A DNA stretch of 64,000 nt, taken from the NCBI GenBank assembly GCA_907163375.1, contig CAJQUW010007293.1:282001-346000 (forward strand), in the 5' to 3' direction. Every line of letters starts with the position of its first letter. Position 1 is the first letter of the stretch. The notes below the pieces were generated by a model. The model saw only the letters and a list, made by a program, of their open reading frames with translations, was not told the origin of the DNA and made no database searches. Positions 7,776 to 64,000 of the stretch are shown here, piece after piece. Position numbers and translations under genes: made by a program. The stretch comes from Prostheceraeus crozeri. Lineage: Eukaryota; Platyhelminthes; Polycladida; Euryleptidae.

Positions 7776-7786
7776 AGTAGTATATA

Positions 7787-7849
7787 GTGTGACATCCGGC
7801 GCAACGCTTCGCTTCGCTTTGCTTCGCTTCCTTGCGCCGGATGTCACAC
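7787..7849. repeat. Terminal hairpin, Polinton 1 left
   Basis: An 18-bp perfect stem (7787-7804 with 7832-7849) beginning GTGTGACATCCGGCGC, with a loop made of repeats of the pentamer CGCTT/GCGAA. The same hairpin occurs at all four visible Polinton termini with different loop repeat numbers. Confidence 0.88.
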
Positions 7850-7937
7850 TTTTGCGGGGTTTTTCAAAATTTTCAAAAAAATCAAAATTTCAAAAATTTA
7901 GGTAGACTTCAAATTTCACGTGGCCGAAGGCCGAAGG

Positions 7938-8127
7938 GCGAAAATTTAAGTTGTCTCAAAATATCACGTAATCGAAAATTTAAGTTGTCTCAAAATATCA
8001 CGTGGTCTAAGAATTTTGAAAATTTAGGCAGACGAAAATTTAAGTTGACTCAAAATATCACGTGGTCTAAGAATTTTGAAAATTTAGGCAGACGAAAATT
8101 TAAGTTGTCTCAAAATATCACGTAGTC
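7938..8127. repeat. Subterminal direct repeats with CACGT cores
   Basis: Four spaced copies of a segment reading GAAAATTTAAGTTG then CTCAAAATATCACGT; the central period is about 62 bp. They are mirrored in the right TIR. Position next to the end and upstream of the first gene suggests a promoter or replication-protein site (inference). Confidence 0.7.
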
Positions 8128-8168
8128 TCAATATACCAGAAGATTGTATTCAAAATATTTATTTAAAA

Positions 8169-8846
8169 ATGGAAGAAACAAAAGTGGAAGAAACCGCAAG
8201 AATATATCCTTCGTTATCACAGTTAAAAATAAGTGAATTGAATAAAGAAAAACACAAAAATAGAGTACGTTATATGAAAGATAAGGAATCTCAATTATTA
8301 TTAAGATTAGAGCATTATAAAAAATTAAGAAAGAGATGGACCAAAGTTAAGAATGTAACACAAGGAATTGGCATATTCTTAACAATAAGTTTAGGTGCTT
8401 TAACAATTGTTATATCTTCAGGTGTTTTAGTAATTCCTGTTGTTGCTACAGCTTTAACAGGTACGGGTGTTTTTGCAACTTCACTTGTTACAATGTTAGA
8501 TAAATCTTTAATAACTAAGAAACGAAAATCATTAAAAACTAAGCATTTACATATTAAAGAAGTCTATGATAAACTACATTACTACTTTCAAAGAGTATGT
8601 GATGATAATGTTATTACGTTAGATGAGATTGAAAAATTTGATCAAATAGCTAATGAAGCTAATAAAACGCCATTTCATTTAAAGTCCGAAAAAGTTGATG
8701 ATAAGAATAAACAGGATGGTAAAATTTCTAGTGATGGTAAAATTTCTAATGAAGAAAATGACAAAATGTTTTTAGAAGAGCTAAAAACTTTAAGCGAAAA
8801 TTTAAGCAAAACTTTATTAAACAAAACTTTATTAAACAAAACTTAA
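8169..8846 (+). CDS. Membrane protein, Polinton-specific (225 aa)
   Basis: Family not recognised. A charged N-terminus with a Lys/Arg-rich helix (about residues 25-62) precedes a strongly hydrophobic, Gly/Ala-rich stretch at 67-110 that could form two membrane segments or a hairpin. A helical, acidic C-terminal half follows and ends in near-repeats of LLNKT. The ATG after TTTATTTAAAA matches the A-rich start context of the other genes. The first 18 or so codons lie in the TIR. A broken homologue is at 43272-43979. It could be a virion membrane or penetration protein; that role is inference. Confidence 0.7.
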   Translation: MEETKVEETARIYPSLSQLKISELNKEKHKNRVRYMKDKESQLLLRLEHYKKLRKRWTKVKNVTQGIGIFLTISLGALTIVISSGVLVIPVVATALTGTGVFATSLVTMLDKSLITKKRKSLKTKHLHIKEVYDKLHYYFQRVCDDNVITLDEIEKFDQIANEANKTPFHLKSEKVDDKNKQDGKISSDGKISNEENDKMFLEELKTLSENLSKTLLNKTLLNKT

Positions 8847-8967
8847 AACGAGAAACCTTTAAACGAAAAGATGTCAGACAACAAAGCAATAAAAAAATAA
8901 TTTGTTCAGTAAAATGTTTTTGTTGTATTCCAATGTTACCACAAAATTCAAATATTATATTTTAAAA

Positions 8968-9787
8968 ATGGATCAAATTAAAGCTGATAATTTTAAAAGA
9001 ATTAAACAATTAGAAGAGTTAATAAAACAAAGAAATATTATGAAAGAAAATCATCTTCAACATAGAATGATAAAAGCTGGTATTCAATCTGATATGTTTG
9101 AAAAAATGCAACAAACCGAGCAAGTAAAAACTGATTTTGAGAAAACTATGAAACCATTTAAAACTCTTGAAAAAGAACTTACAAATAATGATAAACAAAT
9201 TGATATAACAGATCCAGAGCACAAAACTATATTAGATGACTATGGATTACTAGAATCAAACATTAATAAGAAATTACCAAAATCTATGCAATTTGAACAT
9301 TCTATTTCATTTATAGATGGAAAAACAATACCTAGATTTTATCTCGGACAAAAAGAAATATTTCCACAACCTTTTCGAGGTTTAATTTTTTCACCAGATA
9401 AATCTCCTTTTAATTTAGATAGAAATTTTGTTAATCTTTTAAGAGGAGCAGATTTAAATAATTATGCTGTAGAAGATCTCATAAAATATAAAGCTATGTT
9501 AGATAGAGTTGGTGCAGTAAAATCTCTTAGACGTTATAAACAATTAGAAAATTTATTATCAACGGGAGTTAAAGTAGGAAAAGGTTTTAAAACAGAAAAC
9601 AGAAACAACTGTATTTTTACCAGATGATCCACAAGAATTACTAAATAGATTAAATATTTTAATATCTGCAATAAAAGAAGGACATAATTCTAGTTTCAAT
9701 GAAATTCATGCTATATTGAAAAGACTGTTAGAAAAGAAGATTCTAAATGAAGAGGATCATAAAAGTATAACGAACCGAATGTTCTAG
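8968..9787 (+). pseudogene. 275-aa-family virion-associated protein, frameshifted
   Basis: Homologue of the intact gene at 42323-43150. The N-terminal 40 residues are basic and helical, and the middle contains FIDGKTIPRFYLGQKEIFPQ. Near 9585 a short deletion relative to Polinton 2 shifts the frame, giving an early stop at 9625-9627. The remaining C-terminal region (9628-9787) is still readable but ends in an inserted GC-rich palindrome that replaces the last residues. Function unknown; its place before the penton-like gene suggests a structural or assembly role. Confidence 0.75.
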
Positions 9788-9803
9788 GGCTTCGCCCTTA
9801 CCT
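9770..9803. repeat. GC-rich palindromic element at gene end
   Basis: The block contains GGGCTTCGCCC and a GAACCGAATGTTC-type arm. It is absent from the aligned position in Polinton 2 (near 42330), where the gene runs on to its normal end. Confidence 0.75.
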
Positions 9804-9866
9804 GAAATATGTTGTTGTTTTTAATTTTTTCTATAAAACACATTTATTCAAAATTTTAACTAAAAA

Positions 9867-10655
9867 ATGCGTTCAGCAGATTTAGACAAAATTAATAATC
9901 ATTTAGAAAATTTGACAGAGATTTTGGGTTCATCAAAATTTAGTACGACGTTAAAAATTATAACAACTACTTCATCACACACTTGTAATTTAGAACCCAT
10001 TCTACATTTAGAACAAAATAAAAATTATCAAATTGCATTGACTAGTTTCTCCACATTTAACACTATTCAAAACGTTATCAAAGATGTGAATGACCAATTT
10101 AGATATTCTACTGATAAAGGCAAAACATGGAAAATACTAACTTTTCTTCCTGGTTCTTACGAAGTTGAATCAATATCAAATGAAATTAAGAGATATTTAG
10201 GTATACCATTTAAAGATAAGAAACAATTACATTTTGCAGTTGAACCGGCAGTTAATAAATTTTCTCTTACTTTAGACGAAAATCATCAAGTTGATTTTAA
10301 TCATGATAGATCATTGTCAAAGCCATTAGGATTTAATAAACAAACCTATAGTCAAGGTTATCATTTAGGTGAGAAGATTCCAAAAATAACTGAAATAAAT
10401 TCAATTGTTGTACATTGTGACATTATTGAAGGAGGATATATAAATGGTAAATTGTCAAATTTAATATTCAGTTTTCCAGCTTTTACTGTACCCATTGGTT
10501 ATAGATTAAATGTAATTCCACAAACATTAATATATTTCCCTATTACAAGAAAAACTATTAACAACATTAACATGAGAATCACTGATGAAAAAGGACAAGA
10601 AATAAATTTTGGAGGTGAAGAGATTTTAATAGATCTTTTGGTTCGGGAGGTATAA
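9867..10655 (+). CDS. Penton-like minor capsid protein (262 aa)
   Basis: Probable single jelly-roll vertex protein. After a short N-terminus it shows an LEPILHLEQNKNYQIALTSF segment, then a TFNTIQNV and FRYSTDKGKTW region, then FLPGSYEVESIS. This order and spacing resemble Polinton minor capsid proteins, which open with a strand pair around a YEIAL-like motif and an N-I-x-N-like turn. The frame is intact, and the copy at 41492-42280 is almost identical. The last codons and stop lie in a palindrome (GGGAGGTATAAACTCCC). Its position just before the packaging-type ATPase fits a morphogenesis block. The call comes from pattern memory, not a search. Confidence 0.7.
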   Translation: MRSADLDKINNHLENLTEILGSSKFSTTLKIITTTSSHTCNLEPILHLEQNKNYQIALTSFSTFNTIQNVIKDVNDQFRYSTDKGKTWKILTFLPGSYEVESISNEIKRYLGIPFKDKKQLHFAVEPAVNKFSLTLDENHQVDFNHDRSLSKPLGFNKQTYSQGYHLGEKIPKITEINSIVVHCDIIEGGYINGKLSNLIFSFPAFTVPIGYRLNVIPQTLIYFPITRKTINNINMRITDEKGQEINFGGEEILIDLLVREV

Positions 10656-10690
10656 ACTCCCGTTCGAGAGGTATAAACTCCCACGCGAAG
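10645..10690. repeat. Tandem hairpins over 3' end of penton-like gene
   Basis: Two copies of GAGGTATAAACTCCC-type palindromes; the first contains the stop codon. Conserved at 41460-41510. Confidence 0.75.
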
Positions 10691-10792
10691 CTAGAGAAGT
10701 TTAATTTTCTTCTTCTTATTATTATTATTCTAATTCTTCTTCTTTAGACACAAAAAATAAAAAAATTAAAAATAAAATTTTTTTATTAAAAA

Positions 10793-11558
10793 ATGAGTGA
10801 ACTACCTCCATTTAATAAAAAAAAACTCAAATTTAATCATCATCCAAATTTATCTAATAAAGTTTTGTCAGTTATTTGTGGAAGATCAGGATGTGGAAAA
10901 ATATATCTATTATTTAAAATTTTAACGACTCCAAATTTTTTGGATTATAACAATCTTATAATTTATACAACAACAGCAGAACAACACGTCTATCAATTTT
11001 TAAAATAAAGATTTGAAAATAATCTTAAAAAACAGCAATTGCTTCATTATTCAAAGAATATGAAAAATCTGAAGATGAAGAAGAAATAAGTTCGTGGTGT
11101 GAAGAAGCAGCAAAAAATAATCAGTTAGTTGAATCCAATAAAAATAAGCATATAAAAATACAATTAATAGATGATAGTGGTAATATGCAAGATCCTAGTA
11201 AACTAGATAAAACAATGAAACATTGTGTAATTTTTGATGATTGTGTTAATGATAGAAATCAGTCAGTTCAGAGAAATTATTTCACAAGAGGTAGACATAA
11301 TAACTGTAGTGTTTTTTATTTAACACAAAGTATGTATTCATTAGACGGAAGTGTTATTAGAAAGAATGCAAATATATCTATACTATTTGAAATAAATGCA
11401 AGAAACTTAAGTGATTTGTTAAGAGATTTATGTGTAAGAAATAAAGATGAATTTAAACAATCGTGTAACAATGCTTGGTCAAAAGATTATGGCTTCATTA
11501 CAATTAATATTGATAAAAAATTCATGATAGAGTTATAGAAAATATTTTCGCGGAGTGA
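10793..11558 (+). pseudogene. Packaging-type ATPase (FtsK-HerA/A32-like), broken
   Basis: Homologue of the intact 255-aa ATPase at 40630-41397. The Walker A motif is altered to GRSGCGKI, with isoleucine for the usual Thr. An in-frame TAA replaces a tyrosine codon near 11008 and a frameshift follows shortly after. The segment from 11185 keeps the Walker B region (CVIFDDC) and the RNYFTRGRHNN stretch. In Polintons this ATPase pumps DNA into capsids. This copy cannot be functional. Confidence 0.85.
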
Positions 11559-11607
11559 TCGAATAATTTTTTCTTATAAATTTTTTGTTAATAAAAATAA
11601 AAAAAAT

Positions 11608-11913
11608 ATGTTGAATGCTTACAAGATAGAGCATGTACCAGTTTTAAAAGATTATCGTCATCCTACAAATCCTGTAAATTCGAAGAAAGAAGTTAGATTT
11701 TATTATCATCATAAATAAGTAGCGCTCGTTACAGATTATAAAACAAAACATGGTATTGAACCGTGTGTTAAAACAAAAGACTTTCCACTTTGTTTAAGAA
11801 GTTTCCGAGTATTTTTGGCGTATAATAATTTATAGTGGTTGGATAAGAAAGAACATTTAACAACACATGAATTAGAAACATTACATCAATTACATATTCA
11901 TGTGTATATGTAA
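11608..11913 (+). pseudogene. Small gene of about 101 codons with two stops
   Basis: A single frame from ATG 11608 to TAA 11911-11913 contains two in-frame stops (TAA about one third in, TAG about two thirds in) but otherwise reads as protein, with motifs such as EVRFYYHHK and FPLCLRSFRVFLAYNN. It lies 49 bp after the ATPase and 49 bp before the polymerase. No equivalent is seen in Polintons 2 and 3, so it belongs to the Polinton 1 polymerase cassette. Family not recognised. Confidence 0.5.
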
Positions 11914-11962
11914 AAACGGAACCGAGGTTCTATGTAAAAATTCATTTTTTCTTTTAAAAAAT

Positions 11963-14900
11963 ATGAATCGTGAAATGTCTCTCGGACAAACGTCTAGGAT
12001 TGATGAATTAATCAAGAAACAAACTGCTGAGTTTGATGCGCAAATTAAACATAGTAAACGTAGTAAACGTATTAAAAAACAGAAACGTACTAGGCGTAGT
12101 ATTAGACGTAATATTAAAAAACAGAAAAGTGGAACAAAAGAAATATTAGAAACTCCTATTACTGATATCTTTCTTGATGATAGAATTAAGGATGAACTTG
12201 GTGATGATTTATGTAATTTATTTAATCCAAATGAAATTAAATATGAAAATGTATCTTTTATTAATGTAGTAAATGATATGAGGAAACTTTTAGCAAATGG
12301 TAAAATTATTAATTTACTTGGAAAAGTTGTTAGAGATCAGGAAAATATAATTCAAAATTTTTACGTAACCTTCTATAATAAAAATTCATTTGAAATATGG
12401 TTTTCCAATCTGGATGAGAAATCCGATGCTAACGAATGGATTTTTGCAGGTAATATTAAATATGAAGATTTTGGAATGAAGTTAGTACAAAGATCGCATA
12501 GAGGGGCAGGGATTAATATGAAATATAGAATCAAAGAATATTTCGGTGAATATTGTTATATTCCTTCTGAAGATTTTTGTTTTATTAAATGTTTTAATGT
12601 TTTACGAGGTTTTAATGAAGAACAAGGAGAAATGATGAAAGAAATGTTTAATAATTTTTTACATAAAGAGAAAGCCACATCTAGAACAGGAGTAATGTCA
12701 AACTGCAAATTTTCTCAATTCAATAAATATTTTGAAGAATGTGTTCAATATTATAGTCCTGCCAATCGTCATTTAAATCCTAGAGGAATTGAAACGTTTC
12801 ATAATTATGTTTATTACAATTATTTTCACGAAGGTTCAACAATTGGTCACTATTGTTTAATTAATAAATCTCATAAATTAAAAGCTATTAGAGAAATTGA
12901 AAATAATTTCAAACCCATATATAAAACAGTTACTGATGAAAATCTAACAACGCGTCCATATAAAATCATAACAAAGAAAAAAATTGACTATAGTTCAACA
13001 TATATTTGGGATCTCGAAACTTTTCCTGATCCTAACTGTTTAACAGCTCATCCTATTCCTTATGCTGTAGGAGCTATTAATTTTAATAAATTTATATCTT
13101 GCTTACCGAAACAAAGATTGAAAGAATTAGAAACACGTTTGTTAAGTGATATGATTAAAATTAAACGATCAAAAGATGAAGATGAAATTAAAAAACTTAA
13201 AAAACAGATTAATGAGTATAATAATTTCACTGAATTAGAATTTAATAAACTTCAAAATTGTGTGAAAATATTTACGAGAACTGAGGATGATGAATGTCCG
13301 ATCGGGGGAAACCCAGAGGACGTATGTCCGATCCATCAATTTTTCAAAACTCTTGGAAAATTTAATTATTCGAAAGTAACTTTAATAGCTCACAATTCAT
13401 CAGGTTTTGATTCCTATTTTCCGATAAAAGCTAATTTTAAATTATCTAAACCGCCTCTTAAAACTTCAAGAGGAATATTAACTGCTTCATTACAAAATCC
13501 TTATACAACTGAATGTGTTAGTAGATACATTCAAAAATCTTTTAGATTTAAAAACAATATGAAAAAAGATTCACCTTCAGGTAAATAAGCACTTCAAACT
13601 ATTATAATGAAATGTAGTTATCAACATGTAAAAACAAGTCTTTCTAAATGGTGTGAGAATTTTAAAATTCCTACGAATGTGTGTAAATTAAATTATGAAA
13701 TTGGAGACATAACACATGAAAATTATAAAGAAAAAGAAAATGAATGGAGACCATATTTAGTTAACGATATTCTTTCTTTAGCTTTTTGTATCTACAAATA
13801 TAATAATGTTATGCGAGATTTAGTTGGTGAAGATATAACTACTAATTTGACATCCTCTGCTTTAACATTTAACGGTTGGATGAAAAGCGTACAAAATGAC
13901 AATATAAATATTCATTCTCATATAGATTTATGGGCTAGACATTATATTAGAAAATCTGTTAAAGGTGGAAGAGTTTCAGCAAATATAAGAAAATACATAT
14001 CGCCATTTTGTAGCATCTTGTTACCAATATTAAAACAGAATTTACCTGGTCGCTACGCTGGGGGGACTTTGTCCCTTGGAAGTAATTTAATAGATTTAAT
14101 GAAACAGTATCGAGATTTAGGAGATAAAACTGAAATTTGTAAGAAAATTTCAAATCAACTACTTGAACAAAAACATGAATTTCTAATGGCTTTTGATGCC
14201 ACATCTTTATATCCATCAGCTATGTATGATGAAAATTCAGAATACCCTAAAGCTGAATCCGCTAGAAAATTTCGTCAAGAAGAAGAACGGGAAATAGTAT
14301 ATAAATTTAATACTCAAACATTTAGACCTAAAACTGGAATATTTACAGTTGTGTTTCAATATCCGAATGATATGTTTTTTCAACCAGTTCCTATTAAAGA
14401 TAAAGTTAAAAATCAAAATAATAATTCTCATGTAAAAGTAATCAGGTTTAGAAATGGTATATGTTATGATGTATTAACTTCTATAGACATACAATAAATT
14501 GTTAGATGTGGGGGAAAAATCTTACATATTACTGATGGTATAATTTATGAAAAAAATTATCAAGTTTCACCATTTTGAAATTATATTGAAAAACTTTTTA
14601 ATTTGAGAAAAAGATAAAAAACAGAAGGAAATACTGTAGGCGATGAGTTAATTAAATTATTGATGAATTCGCTATATGGCAAAACTGTGCAAAAAGATAT
14701 AACCACTAAATATCATTTATGGAATGAGAATACATTGAGAAAAAATTTCACTCAAGAAGTAAAAGATTATGAAAAATTAAATGATGAACAATATTTAGCG
14801 AAAGTAGAAATGGAAGATGATGAATTTCTTAAAACTAATATTGTAAAAGATGGGAAGACGTCATTCATGCCATCACACTTAGGTTCTTTCATTCTTTCTC

Positions 14901-16516
14901 ACTCTAGAAGAATCATGAATAACTTTATTTTAGAAATTAATGGTTTCAACGAAAAATACATTCATTATACAGATTAAGTAACAGCTGACACGCCTGTAAT
15001 ATTGAGAAAGAATAATTCATTATTTATTTCTAGAATAGATAGTATTGTAAACAACTATAAAATTAATCCGTTTGAAATTAATGGTGATATGAAAGAAATT
15101 TCATTTGTTGATAATTTAGAAATTTATACTCATAATGGATGGAGTAAAGTAAAACAAATATTAGACATCTTACAAATAAAAGTATTTATCGAATAAGAAC
15201 AAAAATGGGAATAGTAGACTTTACTGAAGATCATTCATTGTTAGATGAAAGGGGTAATGAAATAAAGCCACAAGAATTAAATATAGGAACAAATTTACTA
15301 CATAATAAATTATTTTTACACGACAATACAATTACACTGAAACAAATTGTAAGTGATATTTATCTTAATCATCCACCTAATTTAATATGTAAGCGAGCAT
15401 TTGTAGAAGGGTTCTTTTTAGGAGATGGTTCTGCTGGAATCTATAACTATGAATCAGGAGTCAGATATTGTTGTACTTTAAATAACCAAGATCTTAACCT
15501 CTTAATTAAATTAAAAACATATATTAATGAAGTTTATAACAATGATTGTAAAATATATGATACAATGAGATCATCTAGAGTATACAAACTTAATTTTCAA
15601 AATCCAAGACAATATGCTATATACTTTAGCAAAAATTATTATAATCGGTTTAGAGAAAAACGTGTTCCTTGGTATGTTCTGAAGGCTGAATATAATATTA
15701 GATATTGGTTCTTTGTTGGATTTTATGCAGCAGATGGGGACAAGAAATCTTTTTTTACAAGGAAATATGCAACTATTCGTTTCACACAGAAAATAAAGAA
15801 ACCTTTAGTGGTTTATACAATTTGGCATCATCTCTAGGTATTAATTTGGTAGTAAGCGAAAGACAAGATAAACCATTGTGTTTTACTGCGTGTCAAGTTA
15901 AAAATGATATTACCAAAGATGTCACCACTGTAAGATATTTAAATAATAAACCACAATATGTTTATGATATTGAAACAGAAGATGCCGCATTTAATTGTGG
16001 TTTTCCATTAATTGTAAAAAACACTGATTCAATATACATTTCTAATGAGCTCTTCAATAAATTAGATGCTGCTGGATATGTTGGTGGGGAATTGTGTCAA
16101 GGAAAAAATGATTATGGAAATGGTGGAATTATTTTTGCAATGTTTATTGCTCCTAAAATAAAATATTGTATTACTGTAGATGAACAAGGGAGACTTAGTG
16201 AAAAGAAAACATTCAAAGGATATTCACAAGATAAAGTAAAAGTAGAAGATTATATACAATTATGCTATGGTGAAACATTAACAACAACTGTTAATAAACC
16301 ATGGAAAAGATCTTTAGAAACTGGAATTAGTATTCCTGATAAAAATAATAATACTGAAGAAAAAAAATTTCTGGTCAAATAAATATTCTTAAACGTCAAG
16401 CACCTGATGAAAATGAAATTATGTTACCTTATAACGGAGAAGATATTCAAGCTGGAATATTTCAAACAATCGTCTGTGAGAGTAATTTAAGTGATGATGA
16501 TGACACGTGGGAATAA
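11963..16516 (+). pseudogene. Protein-primed DNA polymerase B, intein-containing, decayed
   Basis: It would replicate the element from protein-primed termini. Start ATG 11963. A very basic stretch lies at about residues 30-60. The exonuclease motifs are YIWDLETFPD (Exo I), AHNSSGFDSYF (Exo II) and YLVNDILSLAF (Exo III). The polymerase motifs are DATSLYPSAM (A), NSLYGK (B) and YTD/TDS (C), the last split by an intein at 14975-16022. In-frame stops occur at 13586 and 14495 and again near 14576 and 14615, and there is a frameshift near 16370. It converges on the 461-aa gene. This polymerase differs from that in Polintons 2 and 3 and lacks their DHDH...RGAAH metal motif. Confidence 0.85.
14975..16022 (+). 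other. Decayed LAGLIDADG intein in polymerase motif C
   Basis: The host protein motif Tyr-Thr-Asp/Thr-Asp-Ser is interrupted between Asp and Thr. The insert opens with a stop codon in place of the nucleophile, followed by VTADTPV (intein block A). It then has GIVDFTEDHSLL (block B-like), two LAGLIDADG-type helices (FVEGFFLGDG and VGFYAADGD), and ends with YVYDIETEDAAFNCGFPLIVKN (blocks F/G, terminal Asn) before Thr. The length of 1,048 nt is not a multiple of three; at least two frame changes are present. It is a homing-endonuclease intein that can no longer splice. Confidence 0.88.
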
Positions 16517-16523
16517 TAATTTT

Positions 16524-16592
16524 TTTATTACATCTAAAAAATTTATTACATCTAAAAACTTATTACATCTAAAAATTTTATTACATATGAAA
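16524..16592. repeat. Short tandem repeat between convergent genes
   Basis: Four imperfect copies of TTATTACATCTAAAAA between the polymerase 3' end and the 461-aa gene 3' end. A terminator or spacer role is possible. Confidence 0.6.
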
Positions 16593-54185: not shown

Positions 54186-55520
54186 CTAACCTATCCTAAC
54201 CATCTTTCCATTAAGAATTTCAATAGAATATTTTGCATCTTCTAGCAATAAACCATAAGCCATCAATGAAGTTGTGGAATCTTTCTTTTCAATATTAATT
54301 GTTACATCACAACCATTTTTAATAATATCTTCTGATTGTGCACTTAAATCGAAGCAGAAAATTGGATATAAATGTCTCCAATCTCCAGGAGTTAATTGTG
54401 GTTCAACTCCAAATTCTATACAAAGATTTCTATAAGAATCATATCCTTCCATAAATTGATTATTGGTATCATCGAATCTTAATGGATCAATTGGATATCG
54501 AGTTTGATTTAATGAAACTTGTAAACTTCGAATTGTATTAATATGGAAGATATTATTGTTCTTATAAAAACTTGGAGAATTATTTCTTTGAAATGTTAGT
54601 AATAAATATCTTGGAGTATTCGCAGTTCTAGTAAAATGCCAGTTAAATCTTTGTTCGGAAAAAGTTACTGAAATAGCAGTTCTCTTTAGAAAATTAACTG
54701 GAATTGGTTTGTTAGTATTTAATCTTTTTGCAATAGCTGTTTCAACCTCTAAACTAGGAGTAATATGCTTAATCCACCATTCAAGTCTATCAATTTTTAA
54801 ATATGCTTTTTTCCCAGTCTTACCAAAAAAGATTAATTCATTATTTGCTGTACGATGAATTATTAATTTAAATTTTAATTGATATGATATTTTATCATAA
54901 TCTAAATATCCGAATAATGGAGACAATGACCAATTTACTGTCTGTTTACTTTTTTTGTTAAATTCACGTCTTTCTTTATATGCTTCATTATTTGTTTTAT
55001 TTAAATGTTTTGCAATATTTTCTACATCTTTCGCAATTCCTGCGGCATCTGTTCCAGCGTGAGTTAAATCATCAATAATTATACCATCATTAGTATCAGG
55101 AAACCAACCTTCGATTTCATACTTTTTATTATTTTCACCAATTGTTATAAATCTAAGCATTGTATCAATTACACCTGGGGAATCACTTATTGTTTCTATA
55201 TTTTGAGTTGCAACATCTAAACGCATTTGTGTAAATAAACTTGGGAAAAAATTATTCTCTAGTGTAATATTATCGGTATCTGGTAATGGTGTTGTAAAAT
55301 TAGCATCACTATATAAAGAATATTCGCAGTGTAAAAATGAATCAGGTAAATATAAATAACTCTGCTGATTATCAACTTCAAAGACTAAATCTCCTCCAGT
55401 GTTTACTCTACTGGAAGATCCGGGATTCATAGCAATTCTTATATAGTCATTCTTTTTTTGATTGTAACTGGTGAACGGGGGATCATCTAATCTAAATTTA
55501 TTTTCGATAAGCGAAGACAT
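54186..55520 (-). CDS. Putative major capsid protein (444 aa), copy B
   Basis: Intact and nearly identical to 51612-52946. Confidence 0.72.
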   Translation of the reverse strand: MSSLIENKFRLDDPPFTSYNQKKNDYIRIAMNPGSSSRVNTGGDLVFEVDNQQSYLYLPDSFLHCEYSLYSDANFTTPLPDTDNITLENNFFPSLFTQMRLDVATQNIETISDSPGVIDTMLRFITIGENNKKYEIEGWFPDTNDGIIIDDLTHAGTDAAGIAKDVENIAKHLNKTNNEAYKERREFNKKSKQTVNWSLSPLFGYLDYDKISYQLKFKLIIHRTANNELIFFGKTGKKAYLKIDRLEWWIKHITPSLEVETAIAKRLNTNKPIPVNFLKRTAISVTFSEQRFNWHFTRTANTPRYLLLTFQRNNSPSFYKNNNIFHINTIRSLQVSLNQTRYPIDPLRFDDTNNQFMEGYDSYRNLCIEFGVEPQLTPGDWRHLYPIFCFDLSAQSEDIIKNGCDVTINIEKKDSTTSLMAYGLLLEDAKYSIEILNGKMVRIG

Positions 55521-55636
55521 TTTTATAAAAAATAATTTGACTTTTTGTTTTTCTCACAGACAGAAAAAAAATTTTTACTAAAATATAATTTTAGAATTTT
55601 ACTAAATATAATTTTAGAATTTTACTAAATATAATT

Positions 55637-56182
55637 TTAGAATTTTGCTAGACCAGCTCCGCTACAACTTTGCTGGTTAGACAGAAGGTTGCTGCTCACG
55701 CCATTACCTCTTATTTCTTCAATTGTTTTTTCATTATGTTTACTATCAGACGGAGCTCCGCTCCTCAAGGTTTCCCCAACAGCTCTGTTAGCAATTTTGT
55801 TTTTTGTTTCATCTGAAAGTTTTTTTAATTTTTTTAGTTCTTCAGAATCATTCTTGAGTTTACGAATAGCTTCTAGTTGTTTTAATTCGTTTTGTGATTT
55901 AACAGCATTTGATATTGCACTAGCTGTACTACCTATAGCAGCTGCTCCTTTTGCAGCAGATGTAATCAAATCTTTATTATTTTTAATTAAGTTAACGATA
56001 CTACCAATACCAGAAAAGATGCCATCTCCTTCTTTTTGGACGGCACCTGCGGTGCCTAGGAACTTTTCTGTTCCGACTGTTTCTCTATTATCATAATGAT
56101 AAACAGGATTCATACGTGGTTCATGAGAAATTTTTTGATTTGAAGCAAAATGTTTAAGATTGTGTTTATAAATTATAGGCAT
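55637..56182 (-). CDS. pVI-like small capsid protein (181 aa)
   Basis: Intact homologue of 33018-33563, with AGAVQKEGDGIFSGIGS around the amphipathic helix and the C-terminal SGAGLAKF. The insertion AVQKEGD relative to Polinton 2 is overlapped by a GGCACCTGCGGTGCC palindrome (about 56045-56059). Its start codon lies 30 bp from the inversion junction that decapitates the fibre gene. Confidence 0.7.
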   Translation of the reverse strand: MPIIYKHNLKHFASNQKISHEPRMNPVYHYDNRETVGTEKFLGTAGAVQKEGDGIFSGIGSIVNLIKNNKDLITSAAKGAAAIGSTASAISNAVKSQNELKQLEAIRKLKNDSEELKKLKKLSDETKNKIANRAVGETLRSGAPSDSKHNEKTIEEIRGNGVSSNLLSNQQSCSGAGLAKF

Positions 56183-56210
56183 TTTTTAGGAATAAATTTG
56201 ACTTTTTGGG

Positions 56211-56881
56211 AACTGATGAACGAATTAAAGTTGCTTAAACTTAATGACAAATCATTAAACGAAAAATTATTAAAACTTGATAAAAAGGATAGAGAGCTAG
56301 AAGCAGATATAGCAAAACTTTTTAAAAAGATTTCAGAACAATCAAAAATTTTAATATTACTTTCTTTAAATTTAAAATCTGCAGTCATTAAAAATAAACA
56401 TCAGATAAAAATGTTAAAAGAACAATTAGAAGATGAAATAGAAAAACTACCTGAAAGAATTAAAAAAAATTTAAAACAGTTACAAACTACATTCCAAAAA
56501 AGTGTTGATGAATTGAGTTCTAAAATTACTCAACAAATGAAAAAGATGAATAGAATAATAAATGAAGTAAACTCACTTAATGAAAAAGTTGATAAAATGA
56601 AAACTCTTAAAATCAGTTTAGAAAATGAATTAAAGAAAAATTTACAAGAAAACTCTAAAGAAAATAAAGAAGAGTTAGATTCTGTTAAAAGACAATTAGA
56701 TGTTCTTAAAATTAAGTTAAATGCTCTTAAAACGGCGTTGAAGATGAATCAGCAGAAAATGCAAGTTAATAGAAGAGAAATTAAAGTACATCACACGCTG
56801 CTTGACGCAATAGATAAAGTGCAACAGGCAATTAATAAAGTTATCTCGAAGTTGTTAGATATTCATAAACGTAAATCTTAA
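56211..56881 (+). pseudogene. Fibre-like protein, head missing
   Basis: The coiled-coil shaft of the fibre (from ELMNELKLLKLND onward) is intact to 56881, but the N-terminal head with the GPL/KQYVD motif is absent. The frame happens to be open upstream to 56150 through unrelated sequence. Orientation is opposite to that in Polintons 1 and 2 relative to the pVI-like gene, so an inversion or recombination junction lies at about 56211. Confidence 0.78.
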
Positions 56882-57040
56882 ACGAGTATTGTAAATATTA
56901 ACTTAAATATTTTTTACCTACAAAAAATAAAAATCATAAAAAATATAAATATAATTTAAAAAATACAAAAATATAAATATAATTTTAAAAATAAAAAAGT
57001 ATAAATATATAAAAGTATATAAAAGTATATAATTTTAAAA

Positions 57041-57214
57041 ATGGATAAAATTAGAGCTAATAATTTTAAAAGAATTAAACAATTAGAAGAGTTAATAAAA
57101 GAAAGAAATATTATGAAAGAAAATCAAAGAATAAAAAGAATGATTGATGCAGGTTTGGTTCCTGATAAAGTTAAACCAAAAACGCAATCTGCAAAAGTTA
57201 AGAACAAAAAATAA
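57041..57214 (+). CDS. 57-aa basic protein, short relative of the 275-aa protein
   Basis: ATG after AATTTTAAAA. The first 30 residues (MDKIRANNFKRIKQLEELIK) match the start of the 275-aa protein. It then ends with MIDAGLVPDKVKPKTQSA and a Lys-rich tail. Either a natural short family member or a truncated gene. Function unknown. Confidence 0.6.
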   Translation: MDKIRANNFKRIKQLEELIKERNIMKENQRIKRMIDAGLVPDKVKPKTQSAKVKNKK

Positions 57215-57256
57215 ACATTTTTTTTATAATGGACATCGGTTCATGGGTCAACGGAG

Positions 57257-57850
57257 ATGTCTTCCAAAAATAATAATAATTATTTAGCACAAAATAATAA
57301 TGTAGCACAAAATAATCCTTTTGTTCAAAATAATCCTTTTGTTCAAAATAATAATGTAGCACAAAATAATTATATTGATAAAAATCAATTTGTTGAAAGT
57401 AATAACAAAAAAATATGTTCCGGATGTAATAAAAATATAACATCAAAAAATTTTGCACGTCATTTAAAATTATGCGAACAAACAGAAGAGGTTAAAAAAG
57501 AAAAAAAAGATAAATTAAAAGATCAGTTATGTCGTAATTGTAATAAATATTTTACAAATCAAGGAATTACTAATCATTATAATTCTTGTATAAGTTCTAC
57601 AAGACAATGTACAAGTTGTCAAATTACTAAACCTAAGACAGAGTTTTATGATAGTAAATATCAGTGTAAGGATTGTTTAAAAGAAAAGGTTAAATGTAGA
57701 GGTTGTCAAAAAATTATATTAAAGAAAAATTTTCAGCGACATGTAACACTATGTCCAAAACTTAATCAACATAATAATCAACATAATAATCAACATAATA
57801 ATAATTTATGTCAAAATAATAATTTATGTCAAAATAATAATTTATATTAG
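57257..57850 (+). CDS. Multi-zinc-finger protein (197 aa)
   Basis: Asn/Gln-rich N-terminus, then CSGCNKNITSKNFARHLKLC, CRNCNKYFTNQGITNHYNSC, a CTSC...CKDC pair and CRGCQKIILKKNFQRHVTLC: three CCHC-like fingers of one repeat type plus one four-cysteine pair. The tail repeats HNNQ and LCQNN. Likely a nucleic-acid-binding regulator (inference). The start codon lies inside a GC-rich palindromic element (CGGAGATGTCTTCC). No counterpart in Polintons 1 and 2. Confidence 0.75.
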   Translation: MSSKNNNNYLAQNNNVAQNNPFVQNNPFVQNNNVAQNNYIDKNQFVESNNKKICSGCNKNITSKNFARHLKLCEQTEEVKKEKKDKLKDQLCRNCNKYFTNQGITNHYNSCISSTRQCTSCQITKPKTEFYDSKYQCKDCLKEKVKCRGCQKIILKKNFQRHVTLCPKLNQHNNQHNNQHNNNLCQNNNLCQNNNLY

Positions 57851-57990
57851 TATTTCAACTAAAATAGTTGTATTTCAACTAAAATAGTTGTATTTCAACT
57901 AAAATAGTTGTATTTCAACTAAAATAGTTGTATTTCAACTAAAATAGTTGTATTTCAACTAAAATATTTGTATTTCAACTAAAATAATCT
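57851..57990. repeat. 20-bp tandem hairpin array (7 units)
   Basis: Seven units of TATTTCAACTAAAATAGTTG, the last two slightly changed. Each unit holds CAACT-AAAAT-AGTTG, a 5-bp stem with a 5-nt loop. It lies just after the zinc-finger gene. Confidence 0.92.
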
Positions 57991-58044
57991 TATATATATT
58001 AAAATATTATTTTTTATAAAGAATAAAATATTATTTTATTAAAA

Positions 58045-58185
58045 TATTCTTAAGCATTCCGGAAGAGAGGAGAGGTTCGGAACATACTTCTTTTGAGTAT
58101 AGGAACAAAAAGTCCGACACATTCCGGAGGTTCTACAGAGGTTAAAAACACTCATAAGAGTGTAAGAATGCGAGTCCGGAATTAA
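58045..58185 (+). ncRNA. Candidate structured RNA
   Basis: A GC-richer island of about 135 bp in very AT-rich DNA, without an open frame. ATTCCGG (58056-58062) can pair with CCGGAAT (58176-58182) to close the whole region. Internal hairpins include ATACT...AGTAT (about 58084-58100) and ACACTC...GAGTGT (about 58148-58163). A second ATTCCGG at 58121-58127 offers an alternative pairing. No known RNA class recognised. Confidence 0.4.
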
Positions 58186-58225
58186 AAAAATAATAATTCC
58201 TAAATTTTTATTTTAAAAATATTAA

Positions 58226-58570
58226 ATGAATAAAATCGAAAATTTGGAAGATTTATATTCACCGGTTATAATTAAAAGTAATAAAAGTAATAAAAGTAAT
58301 CTAAGTCGTCATAAATCTCTTAATGCAATAAACGAAATAATAAATAATTATATGAAAAACACTGAGTTTCAAGATACACTAACCCCTCAAGATCGGAATC
58401 TCAAAGATATTAATAATATTGTAGAAAATCCTATATATAATACTAAATATAATAATAATATAGATAAAAATATATATAATAATATAGATAAAAATATATA
58501 TAATAATATAGATAAAAAATATTTAGAGCCACTACCCCCTAATTCATCTCTTAATAAAAAAATACCATAA
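58226..58570 (+). CDS. Asn/Lys-rich 114-aa protein or N-terminal part of ATPase
   Basis: Low-complexity protein with a triplicated IDKNIYNN repeat. It is in the same frame as the following ATPase region, with only two stops between (58568 and about 58601), so it may be the front of one longer, now interrupted gene. No domain recognised. Confidence 0.45.
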   Translation: MNKIENLEDLYSPVIIKSNKSNKSNLSRHKSLNAINEIINNYMKNTEFQDTLTPQDRNLKDINNIVENPIYNTKYNNNIDKNIYNNIDKNIYNNIDKKYLEPLPPNSSLNKKIP

Positions 58571-58621
58571 TCAAATCTTACACGTCTTTGGAATTTTTAA
58601 AAATTTCATTGTATAAAAATA

Positions 58622-59767
58622 TTGTTAGCATGTATTTTAATATTTTTTATTTATCATCTTGTTATATGTATTGGAAATCAATGGGGTTACTTTCTAACAG
58701 AGGAACAAAAGAGAATAATTTTTTATAATCAAGAAAAAAAATCTTTTAAAGGATGGAAGACTGAGGAGGATAAGATTAAGGATAAAACTAATAATAAAAA
58801 TATTAAACAAGGTAAAATGTATCAAGAAAATTTACATTTCATTGTTTACGGTAAAACTGGAAGTGGTAAGACTACGTTTATTAAAAAATATATAAACCAA
58901 TATTATAAGGACGAAACAAAAGTACATATTTTTTATATGCATACTTCTGAATGGCCAACTTTTACAAACGTCTATAATGATAAACAATTAGATGAGTTAC
59001 AAGATATGGAAAGTTTTGCTGGTACACCTGAAAATAAATCTTTATTAATTTTAGATGATGTTGCAAGTTTATCAAAACAAAAAAATATGTCAGAAATATT
59101 TACAAAAGGAAGACATCAAAATATTCAAATAGTTGTATTAGCTCATAAAGCTTGTGATGTAGATAATAAGATTAGAGAAAACATTCAAACATTTTTTACA
59201 ACTACACAAAATAATGCAGCATTCTTTAATGATATCAATAAAAATTATAAAATGAATATGCCTTTATCATATTATACACAACATAAATATGGAATAATAC
59301 GTGTTGACACCATAAGTGAACATATGCAAGTATATGATAAAGACTTGAATATATTAGTAGATACCGAACATGAAATCTATAATAACTCTCAAGATTTTGA
59401 TATTAGAATATATGCAAATACAAAACATTTATCAAATCAAGTTATAGAACAAATAATTATCTTTTTAGAGTCTGAAGCAAAAGTACCACTAAAAATTATT
59501 CCTGATACATTTTATTTTTATTTCGATCATTATTTAAATACAAAATTTGGTATACCAATACCTAACAGATTACAAAATAATGAAACATTAAACTATTTAA
59601 AAATTGCAATAAATGATGTTAGAAACGGTTTAAGAAAAGCAACACCAATAATAACTGATGTTAAATCTACATTTTCTGATGCCAAATCTACATTTGTTGA
59701 AGCCAAAAAAACTTTTAATGATATAAAACCATTAATAAATGATGTAAGTGAAATACTTAATAATTAA
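58622..59767 (+). CDS. Second P-loop ATPase (about 317 aa from ATG 58817)
   Basis: The frame is open from 58622 but the first ATG is 58817. Upstream residues include a hydrophobic segment (ACILIFFIYHLVICI). From the ATG: Walker A GKTGSGKT at residues 12-19, Walker B LLILDDV near residue 80, then FTKGRHQNIQIVVLAHKACD, the layout of viral packaging ATPases. The C-terminal third carries repeats of DAKSTF/EAKKTF. It differs from the 255-aa ATPase of Polintons 1 and 2. A relic of it is at 35978 in Polinton 2. Confidence 0.75.
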   Translation: MLACILIFFIYHLVICIGNQWGYFLTEEQKRIIFYNQEKKSFKGWKTEEDKIKDKTNNKNIKQGKMYQENLHFIVYGKTGSGKTTFIKKYINQYYKDETKVHIFYMHTSEWPTFTNVYNDKQLDELQDMESFAGTPENKSLLILDDVASLSKQKNMSEIFTKGRHQNIQIVVLAHKACDVDNKIRENIQTFFTTTQNNAAFFNDINKNYKMNMPLSYYTQHKYGIIRVDTISEHMQVYDKDLNILVDTEHEIYNNSQDFDIRIYANTKHLSNQVIEQIIIFLESEAKVPLKIIPDTFYFYFDHYLNTKFGIPIPNRLQNNETLNYLKIAINDVRNGLRKATPIITDVKSTFSDAKSTFVEAKKTFNDIKPLINDVSEILNN

Positions 59768-59784
59768 ACAAATTTATCATAATC

Positions 59785-59812
59785 AAACCGAAGGTTCTAG
59801 GGCTTCGCACGA
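59785..59812. repeat. Palindromic element before polymerase
   Basis: AACCGAAGGTTCTAGGGCTTCGCACG, one mismatch in the second hairpin. Confidence 0.75.
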
Positions 59813-60257
59813 TTTTGCAGGTATATTAGTATTTTTTTCTCTAAAAATTAAAACAAAATTTTTTTTTTTAAAAAAACTAAAACACAAATTTTTTCTTTAA
59901 AAAATAAAAAATGAAAACATTTTATTGTGTCTTATGTAAAAAAAGTTACAAACAAAAAGAAGTTATCAATCTCATCTACAAAGTAAAATGCATTTACAAA
60001 ATGTAGAACGAGTTGATGAAGGAAATATATTAAAATTAAATAGTTATAAAAACTATCTAGAAACATTGCCTATTGATATAAAAGTTAAAAAAATGTTTGA
60101 TGATTATTCACATTCGGAATATAAAAAATTTTTTAATAGTGAAGATGAAGCCGTAACAGATATAAAATATTTATTTAGCGATACTGATGAATTTAACGAA
60201 ATAGATGAATTTGATGAAGCCGTAACAGATATAAAATATTTATTTAATGAATCTGTT

Positions 60258-60296
60258 CGTGGGACATCGGAGATGTCTTCCAGGGCTTCGCCCGTT
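60258..60296. repeat. In-frame palindromic insertion in polymerase
   Basis: 39 nt with GGGACATCGGAGATGTCTTCC and GGGCTTCGCCC, flanked by GTT on both sides. The aligned site in Polinton 2 (about 36457) is empty. Adds 13 residues including EMSSRASP. Confidence 0.9.
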
Positions 60297-62585
60297 GAAT
60301 ATAATGAAACCGATAAAACTTTTTCTGATATTATAACCAACTTTTATAATATATTTAAGAAATCTTTCAAATGTTATATGAATGTAGAAGTACTTTATAC
60401 AAAAAATGGATCTGATGGAATTCCTGAAGAAATAATACAAGGACATTTTACAAATTCACAAGAAATACATAATGTAAATGATATACAACCCATATTTGAA
60501 TCGATGATACTTAAATTAGAAAATTGTATAATTGAAGCCCAGTTACGTGAATCTGGTTGGAGATTTGTTAAAATAATATCTAAGAAAATAGTAATTGATA
60601 AATATAAAAATAATACTGGTGGTAGTTATGTTCCTTTACCTTTCAGTTCACCTCAATTAATCAACATAAAAAATGAAGATGATTATTGTTTTCTGTGGAG
60701 TATTATAGCACATTTACATCCTGCAAAATATCATAAAGAAAGACTAAGTCATTACAATAAAGAAGAATACATAAGTGAATTTGATCTTTCTGATGGCTTA
60801 GATGAATTTCCATATGATTATAATAGGTTACTAAAGTTTCATAAAAAGAATAAAAATTTAATTGAAGTAAATGTTTTTGAATTAAATGTGAATTATGTTT
60901 CTATTGGTAAAATTACTCCACTTTACTCAGATTCAAAAAAATTTTATTTGAATAATAAAAATTTTTGCCAATCAGAAATAGTATATAATGATAGAGGTAA
61001 TTACATGCATCATAATATTTTTTACCAAGGAAATATAATATGTACTGAAAAATTTGAACTTGTTAAAACACTAACACCAATAATGATTAATCATAATAAT
61101 TATAAAGGACGTGCTGATGATTATAATTACAAATATTCATCTTTATCTTCAGAATATCAACAAAAATTAGAAAATTTAAATAAAAGTTTACAAAACTGTA
61201 AAACAGATTATCAACAACAATTAAAAATGTTACTACAAGAATATCACCATAAATATCAAAATAAGATAGAAACGATTCAAAAATTAAATGAAGAAAATAA
61301 TAAAAAATTAAATAATAAAGAAAATCAAAAAATAAATGAATGTTTAAAAAAATGTCCAGAACAATATAAAGAACAATATGATAAAGAATATATTTATCAG
61401 CTACAAATATTAAATCAAAATTATTATCAAAATACATTTAATATTACAAAAGAAATTAATGAAACACATGAAATATATAAAGATGAATTTGTAAAATTAG
61501 TACAGTCAAAACAACCAGCACAAGCGAATATATTATATTATCAGGGACATTTTATATTGTGTAAAGATGTTTCTATATTTACAAAAACTTCAGATAATAA
61601 AAATTTTCCTTGTCTTCAATGTATGACAAGTTTTAGAACTTTAGAAGAAATGAATAGACATTTGGAGAATTGTCAACAAAATGAAGCAGTTGAAAATACT
61701 TTTCCTAAAGATGATTATTTAATATATAATAGACATTATTTGAAAAATAAAGTACCCTTTACTATTTATTGTGATTTTGAAGCTTATAATGTTAATATGA
61801 CACAAAATCAAACGGAAAGTTCCAGGGCTTCACCCGATTCTGAAAATTATAATTCTGAAAATTATAATTCTGAAAAAAGTGCGCCTGGAAAAAGTTCAAC
61901 TGGACAAAGTAAAGAAAAATATTTATTTGAACAAAAACCATTATGTTGGGGAATGTACATTCATTCGAATTATCCTGAATTATTTAAATCAGAATATTTA
62001 CAATACTATGGTGAAGATAGTTCAGAAATGTTTACAAAGAAAGTAGAAGAATTACAAGGACGTTTTCACAATTGCTTGAAACAAGTAAACCATTGATACC
62101 ATTAACGGATGAAGAAAGAAAAGAATTTTATGATGAAATAAATTGTTATTACTGTGGAAAATGTTTTATAAATAAATATAAAACTGGCAAAGGTAGATAT
62201 ATTGATAAAGTAAAAGATCATGATCATCTAAATGGATTATATAGAGGTGCAGCACATAATTCTTGTAATCTTAATGCTAACAAATTTAAATATAACTTTG
62301 TTCCTTTATATTTCTACAATGGTTCTAAATATGATTTCCATCTAGTAATGAAAGATTTATTTTCATCTGAAAAATTACAACAACAAAAAATAAATGTACT
62401 ATGTAAACAAGAAGAAGAATATTTTTCAATGCAATTAGGTTGTATTAGAATTTTAGATGCATTTAGATTTTTTACTCCTTATTCATTAGATGTTATGGGA
62501 AAAACTTTAAAACCTGAACAATGTAAAATATTAAATAAATATAATTTAAAACCTTTAAAAGGAATATTTCCGTATGAGTATATAG

Positions 62586-62651
62586 CCTGTGGCTCACAGT
62601 CGGAGACTGATATAACTGGAGATAAAACCTGTGGTTCGCAGTCGAAGACTG
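62586..62651. repeat. Duplicated palindrome pair in polymerase
   Basis: Two copies of TGTGGCTCACA-type plus CAGTCGAAGACTG-type hairpins in frame. Polinton 2 has one copy at about 38764-38790. Confidence 0.82.
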
Positions 62652-63295
62652 ATTTTAATTCTGTGAATAAAATTATGGAAGAAAAACAACTTCCTCCAAT
62701 AAATAAATTTAAATCAACATTAAAACAATCAAAATTATCTGAAGAAGATTATGCAGAAGCTGAAAAAAATTGGAGAGAGTTAAATTGTAAAACAATGTAT
62801 GATTATACAATGAAATATCTACAGATAGATGTATTAATACTAGCTGATCTTTTTGAAAACTTTCGTGATATGTGTTTAGAATATTACGGAATAGATCCAT
62901 GTTATTGTTATTCTACACCAGGTTTAACATGGCTAGCAGGATTAAAACATACAAATGTTAAACTTAAACATTATAAAGAAAATACATATGATAAATTATT
63001 ATTTTTTGAATCTGGAATTAGAGGTGGTGTTTCATCAGTTTTAGGTAATAGATATGTTAAATGTTATAATAAAAAAGTAAATCCTGATGATTATGGAATA
63101 ATGAAACCTTTATCTCCAGAAGAAAAAGAAAAAATATTAGAAATTTTTCGAACGAAACAAGAAGGAGTAGAACGTGAAAAAGCAATTGATGAATTCATGA
63201 GAGAAAACTATTTGTTATATTATGATTTTAATAGCTTATATTCTTCTTGCATGATACAAGAATTACCAACAGGTGAAATGACATGGTGTAATAAT

Positions 63296-63336
63296 CGTAC
63301 GTCATCAGAGATGTCTACTAGGGCTTCACCCGATCT
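63296..63336. repeat. In-frame palindromic insertion in polymerase after motif A
   Basis: Contains CATCAGAGATGTCTACTAGG and GGGCTTCACCC. Missing at the same place in Polinton 2 (about 39457). Confidence 0.85.
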
Positions 63337-64000
63337 AGATTATCAAAGAACATATGATGGTGAAAATAATTTTGGTTATGTATATGAAGTTGATTTAGTA
63401 TACCCTGATTATATAAAAGAAGCAACAAAATATTATCCTTTCTGTCCAGAAAACAAAATTCCCAATATAGAAGATTTTTCAGATTATCAAAAATCTATAA
63501 TGCCGAAAAAATACAGACCAACAAAAAAACTTATGTTAACACAAAGTAATAAAGGAAAGTATGTTGTTGAAGGAAGAATGCTAGATTGGTATTTAGATCA
63601 TGGAATGATTCTCACAAAAATTCACCGGAAACTAGTGTATAAAAAATCTAAATGGTTAAAAGATTATATTGAGTTCAATATTGAAAAACGCAAAATATCT
63701 AAAAGAAATAAAGATGATTTTGGAAACGTGTTCTTCAAATTAATGAATAATGCATTTTATGGTAAGACTTTAGAAAATGTGCGTAATAGACAAAATATTG
63801 AAATAGTTTATGATAGAGATAGATTTCAAAATTTAACAAGGAAACCTACATATAAAAGAACTACTAGATTCAGTGATGAACTTTGTGCTGTTCATCTAAG
63901 AAGAAGCATTGTAAAACATGATAAGTTTAATTTCATTGGTTTCACTATATTAGAATTAGCTAAACTATTTATGTATAGTTTTATATATGATTATTTAGCA

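What the first reader, a model, noticed from the sequence alone, without database searches (positions are those of the whole stretch)
7776..64000. A family of tiny GC-rich paired hairpins colonising the Polintons
Dozens of short blocks (GGAGCTTCGCTCC, GGACCTTTGGTCC, GGGCTTCGCCC, GAACCTTCGGTTC, GGCTAAAGCC and similar) stand out in AT-rich DNA. They usually come in pairs of different hairpins, lie between genes and inside genes, and differ in presence between copies. I saw none in the host DNA of the window. They resemble in concept the double-hairpin elements of Allomyces mtDNA and the Rickettsia palindromic elements, but in an animal mobile virus.
Basis: seen in the sequence. Interest (0 to 1): 0.92.

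Follow-up and report, generated by a model that had tools for sequence, protein, structure and literature searches.

The report
Mobile double-hairpin micro-elements inside Polintons
A family of DNA pieces only about 26-35 letters long, each folding into two tiny hairpins of a kind known to be unusually stable in DNA, appears to jump around inside virus-like Polinton elements of one large genome, landing between and inside their genes mostly without breaking the reading frame: parasites of a genomic parasite.

Summary
Three Polinton copies hold 43 GC-stemmed hairpins with 3-base GNA or AAA loops closed by C-G (about 0.4 expected); 13.9 kb of host DNA in the window holds none. In the window's own 2.05-Gb assembly GGAGC-NNN-GCTCC occurs 10,630 times (reversed control 190); with a 4-base loop 501 times (control 1,176). 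Of 28 loci brought in by one such hairpin, 27 are Polinton DNA; 40.7 kb of other DNA in them holds none. Most units are two hairpins, 24-35 bp in all. Filled and empty alleles coexist at many sites. Five sites show exact direct repeats of 4-6 bp present once in a real empty allele; the Polintons themselves duplicate 6 bp. Outgroup proteins lack the inserted peptides at five sites. One half-unit lies in the same strand and frame in 36 of 38 in-frame cases, at eight sites. Best reading: double-hairpin micro-transposons confined to this Polinton lineage, moving as DNA (inferred); enzyme unknown. They resemble Allomyces double-hairpin elements and Rickettsia palindromic elements but fail defining features of each.

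The parts
7776..24856 (+). Polinton copy A with terminal inverted repeats; 6-bp target-site duplication TACATG
27709..44414 (-). Polinton copy B; 6-bp target-site duplication ATCGTT
47732..64000 (-). Polinton copy C, cut by the window end; has a 2574-bp tandem duplication
9772..9797 (+). F1 unit between genes (site S2); absent in B and L024
17245..17270 (-). F1 unit in an ORF (site S3), peptide RTEGSRALP; no empty allele found
17299..17324 (-). Tandem second copy of the S3 unit; B has one
19029..19055 (+). F2 unit of the S4 array after an ORF stop; lone hairpin 19077-19089 follows
21010..21035 (+). F2 unit at the end of the capsid gene (site S6); GGCTAAAGCC carries the stop codon; empty allele in L013
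21595..21620 (+). F2 unit (site S7); empty in L015 and L019
22131..22197 (+). Composite hairpin region in the ORF with the PLA2 domain (site S8); length differs between copies in steps of 3
29318..29346 (+). F4 unit (site S9B); A is empty
33046..33071 (-). F6 unit (site S5b), direct repeat TAGC/TAGC; A and L010 empty
33608..33665 (-). Two F2 units 4 nt apart (site S4)
35328..35353 (+). F1 unit in an ORF (site S3 in B)
37981..38012 (+). F3 unit (site S10), peptide TSEMSSRASP; degenerate F1 unit at 38030-38055
38762..38787 (+). F5 unit (site S11a) in the polymerase ORF, flanked by ATAT; L005 and L014 empty
47705..47730 (+). F2-type unit just outside/at the outer end of copy C
48007..48031 (+). 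F1 unit in the terminal repeat of C; the B repeat is empty
49131..49159 (+). F4 unit (site S9B in C) flanked by ATCA; empty allele L023
51033..51068 (-). F3 unit in an ORF (site S12; again at 53607); A, B and 13 loci empty
51561..51617 (-). Two F2 units after the capsid gene (site S6 in C; again at 54135-54191)
60263..60293 (+). F3 unit (site 60251); B, L008 and L022 empty
62584..62609 (+). F5 unit (site S11a in C)
62626..62651 (+). Second F5 unit (site S11b); B empty
63303..63334 (+). F3 unit, second hairpin imperfect (site 63294), in the polymerase ORF after DFNSLYSS; B and outgroup P0043 empty

Best explanation
These are non-autonomous double-hairpin micro-transposons that live inside one Polinton lineage. 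Each unit is two short GC-rich hairpins, usually with purine (GNA or AAA) loops on opposite strands, about 24-35 bp. A unit is copied to a new place in a Polinton and duplicates about 4 bp of target. Units stack into arrays and swap halves. Inside genes, in-frame units in one tolerated frame survive. SHOWN here: structure and loop code, restriction to Polintons in the sample, filled and empty alleles in one genome, the same unit at unrelated sites, direct repeats against empty alleles at five sites, empty outgroup state, frame bias. INFERRED: that they move as DNA in the single-stranded stage of protein-primed replication, where GNA mini-hairpins would be stable and nuclease resistant; and that a Polinton or host nuclease or ligase inserts them in trans.
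For: Loop specificity in the window and genome-wide: 10,630 triloop vs 501 tetraloop places for one stem, the first 50 triloop places listed all GAA or GGA. GNA loops on >=2 GC pairs are extraordinarily stable, nuclease-resistant DNA hairpins (PMC4686876, passages). Polinton restriction. Exact direct repeats present once in a real empty allele: S5b TAGC, S6 GATA, S9B CCATCA (ATCA outside the hairpins), S11a ATAT plus one base, S12 AAGG. Polintons duplicate 6 bp. One F3 unit at several unrelated sites. S11a and S11b occur apart and together. First 100 of 2,251 S11a flanks: 56 filled, 44 not; first 100 of 3,445 S5b flanks: 86 filled, 14 not (recount 93). Outgroup proteins empty (by eye). Opposite loop polarity in 46 of 54 distinct scorable pairs. 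Frame bias 36 of 38.
Against: No transposition was seen and no enzyme identified. An automated scan did not separate 47 hairpin-bearing from 86 other insertion clusters by length of exact flanking repeats. Exact repeats are only 3 bp at 60251, 63294 and S11b, 3 or 5 at S7, 2 at C 48003, and none at S2; the S12 insert is longer than the hairpins. At S3 and S10 no empty allele was found. 72 of the 215 GNA-or-AAA loops are AAA, not GNA. 8 of 54 pairs have equal polarity. DNA folding parameters give both strands equal energy, so the DNA argument rests on published data. Short repeats flanking palindromes also promote precise deletion, so some empty alleles may be secondary. One host genome only; listed places are the first in contig order, not random.
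Confidence: 0.74

Rival explanations
1. The hairpins are transcription-end or polyadenylation signals, like the hairpin rule of Mimivirus (recalled).
For: Units at S4, S6 and S7 stand at or right after stop codons.
Against: 123 of 215 core hairpins lie inside open frames of 130 aa or more, some in the polymerase gene; at several sites many copies lack them.
Confidence: 0.06
2. A local mutational process (template switching, slippage, then gene conversion among thousands of Polintons) makes and spreads palindromes without transposition.
For: Tandem and array growth (S3, S4, S8), different units at one site (S2, 60251) and mosaics (S7) show recombination.
Against: The same unit sits at eight sites with unrelated flanks, with direct repeats against empty alleles at five sites.
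Confidence: 0.13
3. The units move through RNA, by reverse transcription of small hairpin RNAs, as suggested for Allomyces elements.
For: RNA hairpins fold too; no DNA transposase for the units is known.
Against: GNA triloops are the stable class in DNA; a tetraloop version of one stem is not in excess; Allomyces elements lack flanking duplications (PMC2800124, passage), several of these have them.
Confidence: 0.12
4. The hairpins serve the Polinton (replication, packaging or recombination sites) and are kept by selection for that role.
For: Many different stems share one loop class; S3 and S10 were filled in every copy seen.
Against: Ten other sites have copies without the unit.
Confidence: 0.07

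Closest known systems
Double-hairpin elements of Allomyces and other fungal mitochondrial DNA
   Same: Two adjacent GC-rich hairpins, patchy presence suggesting mobility (PMC10085805 and PMC2800124, passages).
   Different: Here in nuclear virus-like elements, with direct repeats at several sites that Allomyces elements lack, and in-frame copies in genes.
GC clusters (e.g. GC42) of yeast mitochondrial DNA
   Same: Small palindromic units, presence/absence within species, merger and shuffling (PMC4478555, passages).
   Different: Other genome and sequence; a 3-base GNA/AAA loop code; found only in Polintons in this sample.
Rickettsia palindromic elements
   Same: Fused in frame into many protein genes (PMC2229807, passages).
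   Different: Those are 105-146 bp long stem-loops; these are 24-35 bp with two hairpins and sit in a eukaryotic virus-like element.
MITE-type transposons in viruses (Pandoravirus salinus)
   Same: Transposons colonising a virus genome (PMC4495683, abstract start in listing).
   Different: Ends are hairpins instead of long inverted repeats; no parent transposase known or searched for.
Extraordinarily stable DNA mini-hairpins d(GCGAAGC)
   Same: GNA loop closed by C-G on a short GC stem (PMC4686876, passages).
   Different: Known there as a chemical motif, not as part of a mobile element.

Membership tests
Mitochondrial double-hairpin elements | Two adjacent GC-rich hairpins | tested here: met
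   17 pairs vs 0.03 expected; 55 distinct pairs over window and loci
Mitochondrial double-hairpin elements | Presence/absence suggesting mobility | tested here: met
Mitochondrial double-hairpin elements | Located in mitochondrial DNA | tested here: not met
   In Polintons; the 4.3-kb COX1 locus L029 holds none
Mitochondrial double-hairpin elements | No flanking duplication (Allomyces) | tested here: not met
   Exact 4-6-bp repeats against empty alleles at five sites; weaker or absent at others
Rickettsia palindromic elements | In-frame insertion in protein genes | tested here: met
   36 of 38 in one strand and frame, eight sites
Rickettsia palindromic elements | 105-146 bp with a long stem-loop | tested here: not met
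   Distinct pairs 24-32 bp, peak 26-27
MITEs | Target-site duplication | tested here: inconclusive
   Clear at five inspected sites, imperfect at others, not separated from other indels in the automated scan
MITEs | Terminal inverted repeats shared with a transposase-bearing parent | not tested
   No search for a parent was made; the unit ends are hairpins
Mimivirus hairpin-rule signals | Hairpins at 3' ends of genes (recalled) | tested here: not met
   123 of 215 core hairpins inside long open frames
Stable GNA DNA mini-hairpins | GNA loop, C-G closing pair, >=2 GC pairs | tested here: met
   143 of 307 triloops are C-GNA-G; 72 more are C-AAA-G, which do not meet it

The most novel reading that the evidence does not exclude
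A new class of mobile DNA whose only asset is chemistry: units of about 24-35 nt capped by extraordinarily stable, nuclease-resistant DNA mini-hairpins survive as single strands shed during Polinton replication and are captured into staggered breaks of other Polinton molecules with a duplication of about 4 bp, with no gene or dedicated enzyme of their own. One stem type alone has more than ten thousand copies. They would be among the smallest transposing units known, and hyperparasites of a virus-like element.
Probability: 0.33. Interest if true: 0.96.

Novelty: new variant of a known kind. Interest (0 to 1): 0.88.

Why it matters
Mobile hairpins of mitochondria and of Rickettsia have lacked a mechanism. 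Here thousands of Polinton copies in one genome give filled and empty alleles, footprints and reading frames in large numbers, so insertion rules can be read statistically. The loop code points to DNA, not RNA, as the moving form. If right, it shows transposition-like spread by units too small for ordinary transposase-binding repeats, living on a virus-like element, and shows how short, probably disordered peptides are added to its replication proteins.

Tried and rejected
Relatives in viral contigs: two scans with the capsid protein or its alignment and two unit patterns found none; one genome contigs pattern scan found none. So the phylogenetic spread is unknown. A 158-base DNA query gave no match (the tool says it skips very common words). 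RNA and DNA folding energies do not tell strands or loop classes apart. An automated search for target duplications did not separate hairpin insertions from other indels. Terminator reading rejected by position. An apparent swap of flanks at S7 was first taken for an inversion; two kinds of empty allele (L015, L019) make mosaic recombination likelier. One exception to Polinton restriction, L016, is a homopolymer-rich scrap with a Polinton-like peptide and retroelement ORFs beside it. Never answered by the busy machine: genome counts for GGACCNNNGGTCC, the exact F3 unit and the S9B flank.
Full report
WHAT WAS CHECKED. The window holds two complete Polintons and one cut by the window end, with Polinton marker domains and 6-bp target duplications TACATG (A) and ATCGTT (B). 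A hairpin scan with 60 dinucleotide shuffles shows excess at loop length 3 in the copies and, within that, in C-G-closed GNA (TNC on the other strand) and AAA/TTT loops: 26 and 17 over three homologous copies, about 0.4 expected in all, none in 13.9 kb of host DNA. Loops 8-9 are also raised in the copies (A 4 and 3, B 5 and 3, C 9 and 5, against 1.2-1.5 expected); most of these are coding inverted repeats shared between copies.

ANATOMY. Over the window copies and the loci there are 130 pairs with 0-5 nt between hairpins, 55 distinct, 24-32 bp long with a peak at 26-27. In 46 of 54 distinct scorable pairs the purine-rich loops are on opposite strands, in 8 on the same; distinct sequences are not independent events. 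Families (my labels): F1 GAACC-GAA-GGTTC ta GGGC-TTC-GCCC; F2 GGACC-AAA-GGTCC tca GGTTACTAACC and GGAGC-GAA-GCTCC tcga GGCTTTAGCC; F3 GACATC-GGA-GATGTC ttcca GGGC-TTC-GCCC with further bases at one end; F4 to F6 as in the parts list. F2 units stack in arrays, often with 4 nt such as GATC or AATC between them.

GENOME-WIDE. The window's assembly (G000, 2,048,925,868 bases) answered part of the searches. GGAGCTTCGCTCC: 3,171 + 3,282 places; reversed control 8 + 16. GGAGCNNNGCTCC: 10,630 places, control 190; the first 50 places listed all have GAA or GGA loops. GGAGCNNNNGCTCC: 501, control 1,176. So this stem is in excess only with a 3-base loop; other stems were not counted genome-wide. Of 28 loci brought in by that hairpin (8 automatic, 20 chosen by me on 19 contigs from the first 100 listed; L001 and L002 overlap), 27 are Polinton DNA by protein or DNA similarity. 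They hold 171 core hairpins in 168.9 kb, baits included, and none in 40.7 kb of other DNA; L016, a homopolymer-rich scrap with a Polinton-like peptide, holds 3.

FILLED AND EMPTY. S9B: 17 places, 8 empty, 7 filled, 2 filled with one end deleted. S12: 15 of 19 empty. S5b: 3 of 11 empty. S7: 2 of 13 empty. 60251: 3 of 6 empty; 63294: 1 of 4; S2: 2 of 6; S2 carries F1 in A, another unit in L018 and L027, both in L020. S11: B has only the first unit, L005 and L014 only the second, C and L008 both. S3 (9 places) and S10 (6 places): no empty allele. Genome-wide the S11a flank has 2,251 exact places; of the first 100, 56 filled and 44 not (recount). The S5b flank has 3,445; of the first 100, 86 filled, 14 not (recount).

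FOOTPRINT. Against a real empty allele the insert is bounded by an exact direct repeat of 4 bp at S5b (TAGC), S6 (GATA, L022 or L011 vs L013) and S12 (AAGG, 57-nt insert), 6 bp at S9B (CCATCA, of which ATCA lies outside the hairpins), and at S11a ATAT plus one base shared with the unit (by eye; length 5). It is 3 bp at 60251, 63294 and S11b, 3 or 5 at S7, 2 at C 48003; at S2 there is none, only the inexact ATAAC against GTAGC. By hand, insert length exceeds hairpin-to-hairpin length by 4 at S5b, S6, S7 (A), S9B, S11a, S11b and two further loci (L003, L017); by 5 at S2 (A) and S7 (C); by more in F3. This allows one mismatch in a stem at S5b and S9B; the automatic boundaries, which demand perfect stems, gave 5 and 11 there. 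An automated scan did not separate 47 hairpin-bearing from 86 other insertion clusters by repeat length. I count this against a strong claim.

DIRECTION. Metagenome proteins at 68-79% identity lack the inserted peptides: P0041 at 60251 (it also lacks neighbouring residues); P0041, P0042 and P0043 at S10, a poorly conserved stretch; P0043 at S11a, S11b and 63294, cleanly (alignment, translations, compared by eye). Insertion is the derived state there. Elsewhere precise loss cannot be excluded.

READING FRAME. 123 of 215 core hairpins lie in open frames of 130 aa or more, stop to stop. The half GGGCTTYRCCC was found 48 times: 36 in one strand and frame of such ORFs (SRASP or SRALP), 2 antisense, 10 outside. 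The 36 fall at eight sites as I group them; copies of one site are not independent. All six frames of the 35-nt F3 unit are open and four of six of F1, so lack of stops alone does not explain the bias; tolerance of a hydrophilic, probably disordered peptide is my inference. In-gene inserts were 30, 33, 39 or 57 nt at S5b, S9B, S11, 60251, 63294 and S12; inserts between genes 30 or 31.

MECHANISM. Shown: footprints at several sites, restriction to Polintons in the sample, loop code. Published work reports that GNA or GNNA loops on two or more GC pairs make DNA hairpins with a melting point up to 78 C that resist nucleases (PMC4686876, passages). Protein-primed replication exposes single strands (recalled). 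I infer that units persist and move as single-stranded DNA and are joined into staggered breaks. The Polinton integrase is an unlikely sole agent because the Polintons show 6-bp duplications. The stability of AAA loops was not checked.

COMPARISON AND NOVELTY. Allomyces elements, yeast GC clusters and Rickettsia elements share part of this anatomy; each differs in at least one defining feature (passages of PMC2800124, PMC10085805, PMC4478555 and PMC2229807). Searches of the paper library with Polinton + hairpin + palindromic (8 papers), hairpin + polyadenylation + virophage + Polinton (4), Polinton + stem-loop (12), and three of four of hairpin elements, mobile, eukaryotic virus, target site duplication (17, of which 12 listed) showed no title or abstract start describing this. 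Most subscription papers and all preprints lie outside that library, and I opened none of these listed papers.

HOST. COX1 on contig C6227 has 8 TGA inside its frame, as where TGA is read as Trp; COX1 and COX2 look molluscan to me (recalled, untested).

Noticed in passing
G000 (whole assembly): Thousands of Polinton copies: 3,445 exact matches to one gene-end flank and 2,251 to a polymerase flank in 2.05 Gb.
   Followed up: partly
50639-55776: 2,574-bp tandem duplication in copy C at 99.7% identity; the junction (53201-53213) lies 12-24 nt from hairpin GGAGCTCCGCTCC at 53177-53189.
   Followed up: no
56150-56881: One ORF of copy C is inverted relative to A and B, with one breakpoint at the position of the S4 hairpin array, as if the arrays were recombination points.
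   Followed up: partly
11560-16622: Copy A has a stretch with no DNA match to B or C, although both A and B hold PolB-type ORFs in that part.
   Followed up: no
38130-38460: Weak Endonuclease VII-type match, below its cut-off, before PolB; the same family is precomputed for relative P0041. A junction-cutting nuclease would be a candidate partner of cruciform DNA.
   Followed up: no
21013-21015: The capsid gene's stop codon TAA lies inside the hairpin GGCTAAAGCC; in C the stop is the TAG of GGTTAG in another unit.
   Followed up: partly
21591-21624: At S7 the bases ATTC and ATAA on the two sides of the unit are exchanged between A/B and C; both also occur as empty alleles. Mosaic recombination likely, not shown.
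   Followed up: partly
552-1442: Host ORF resembling a Tc1/mariner-type transposase (recognised by eye, not searched).
   Followed up: no
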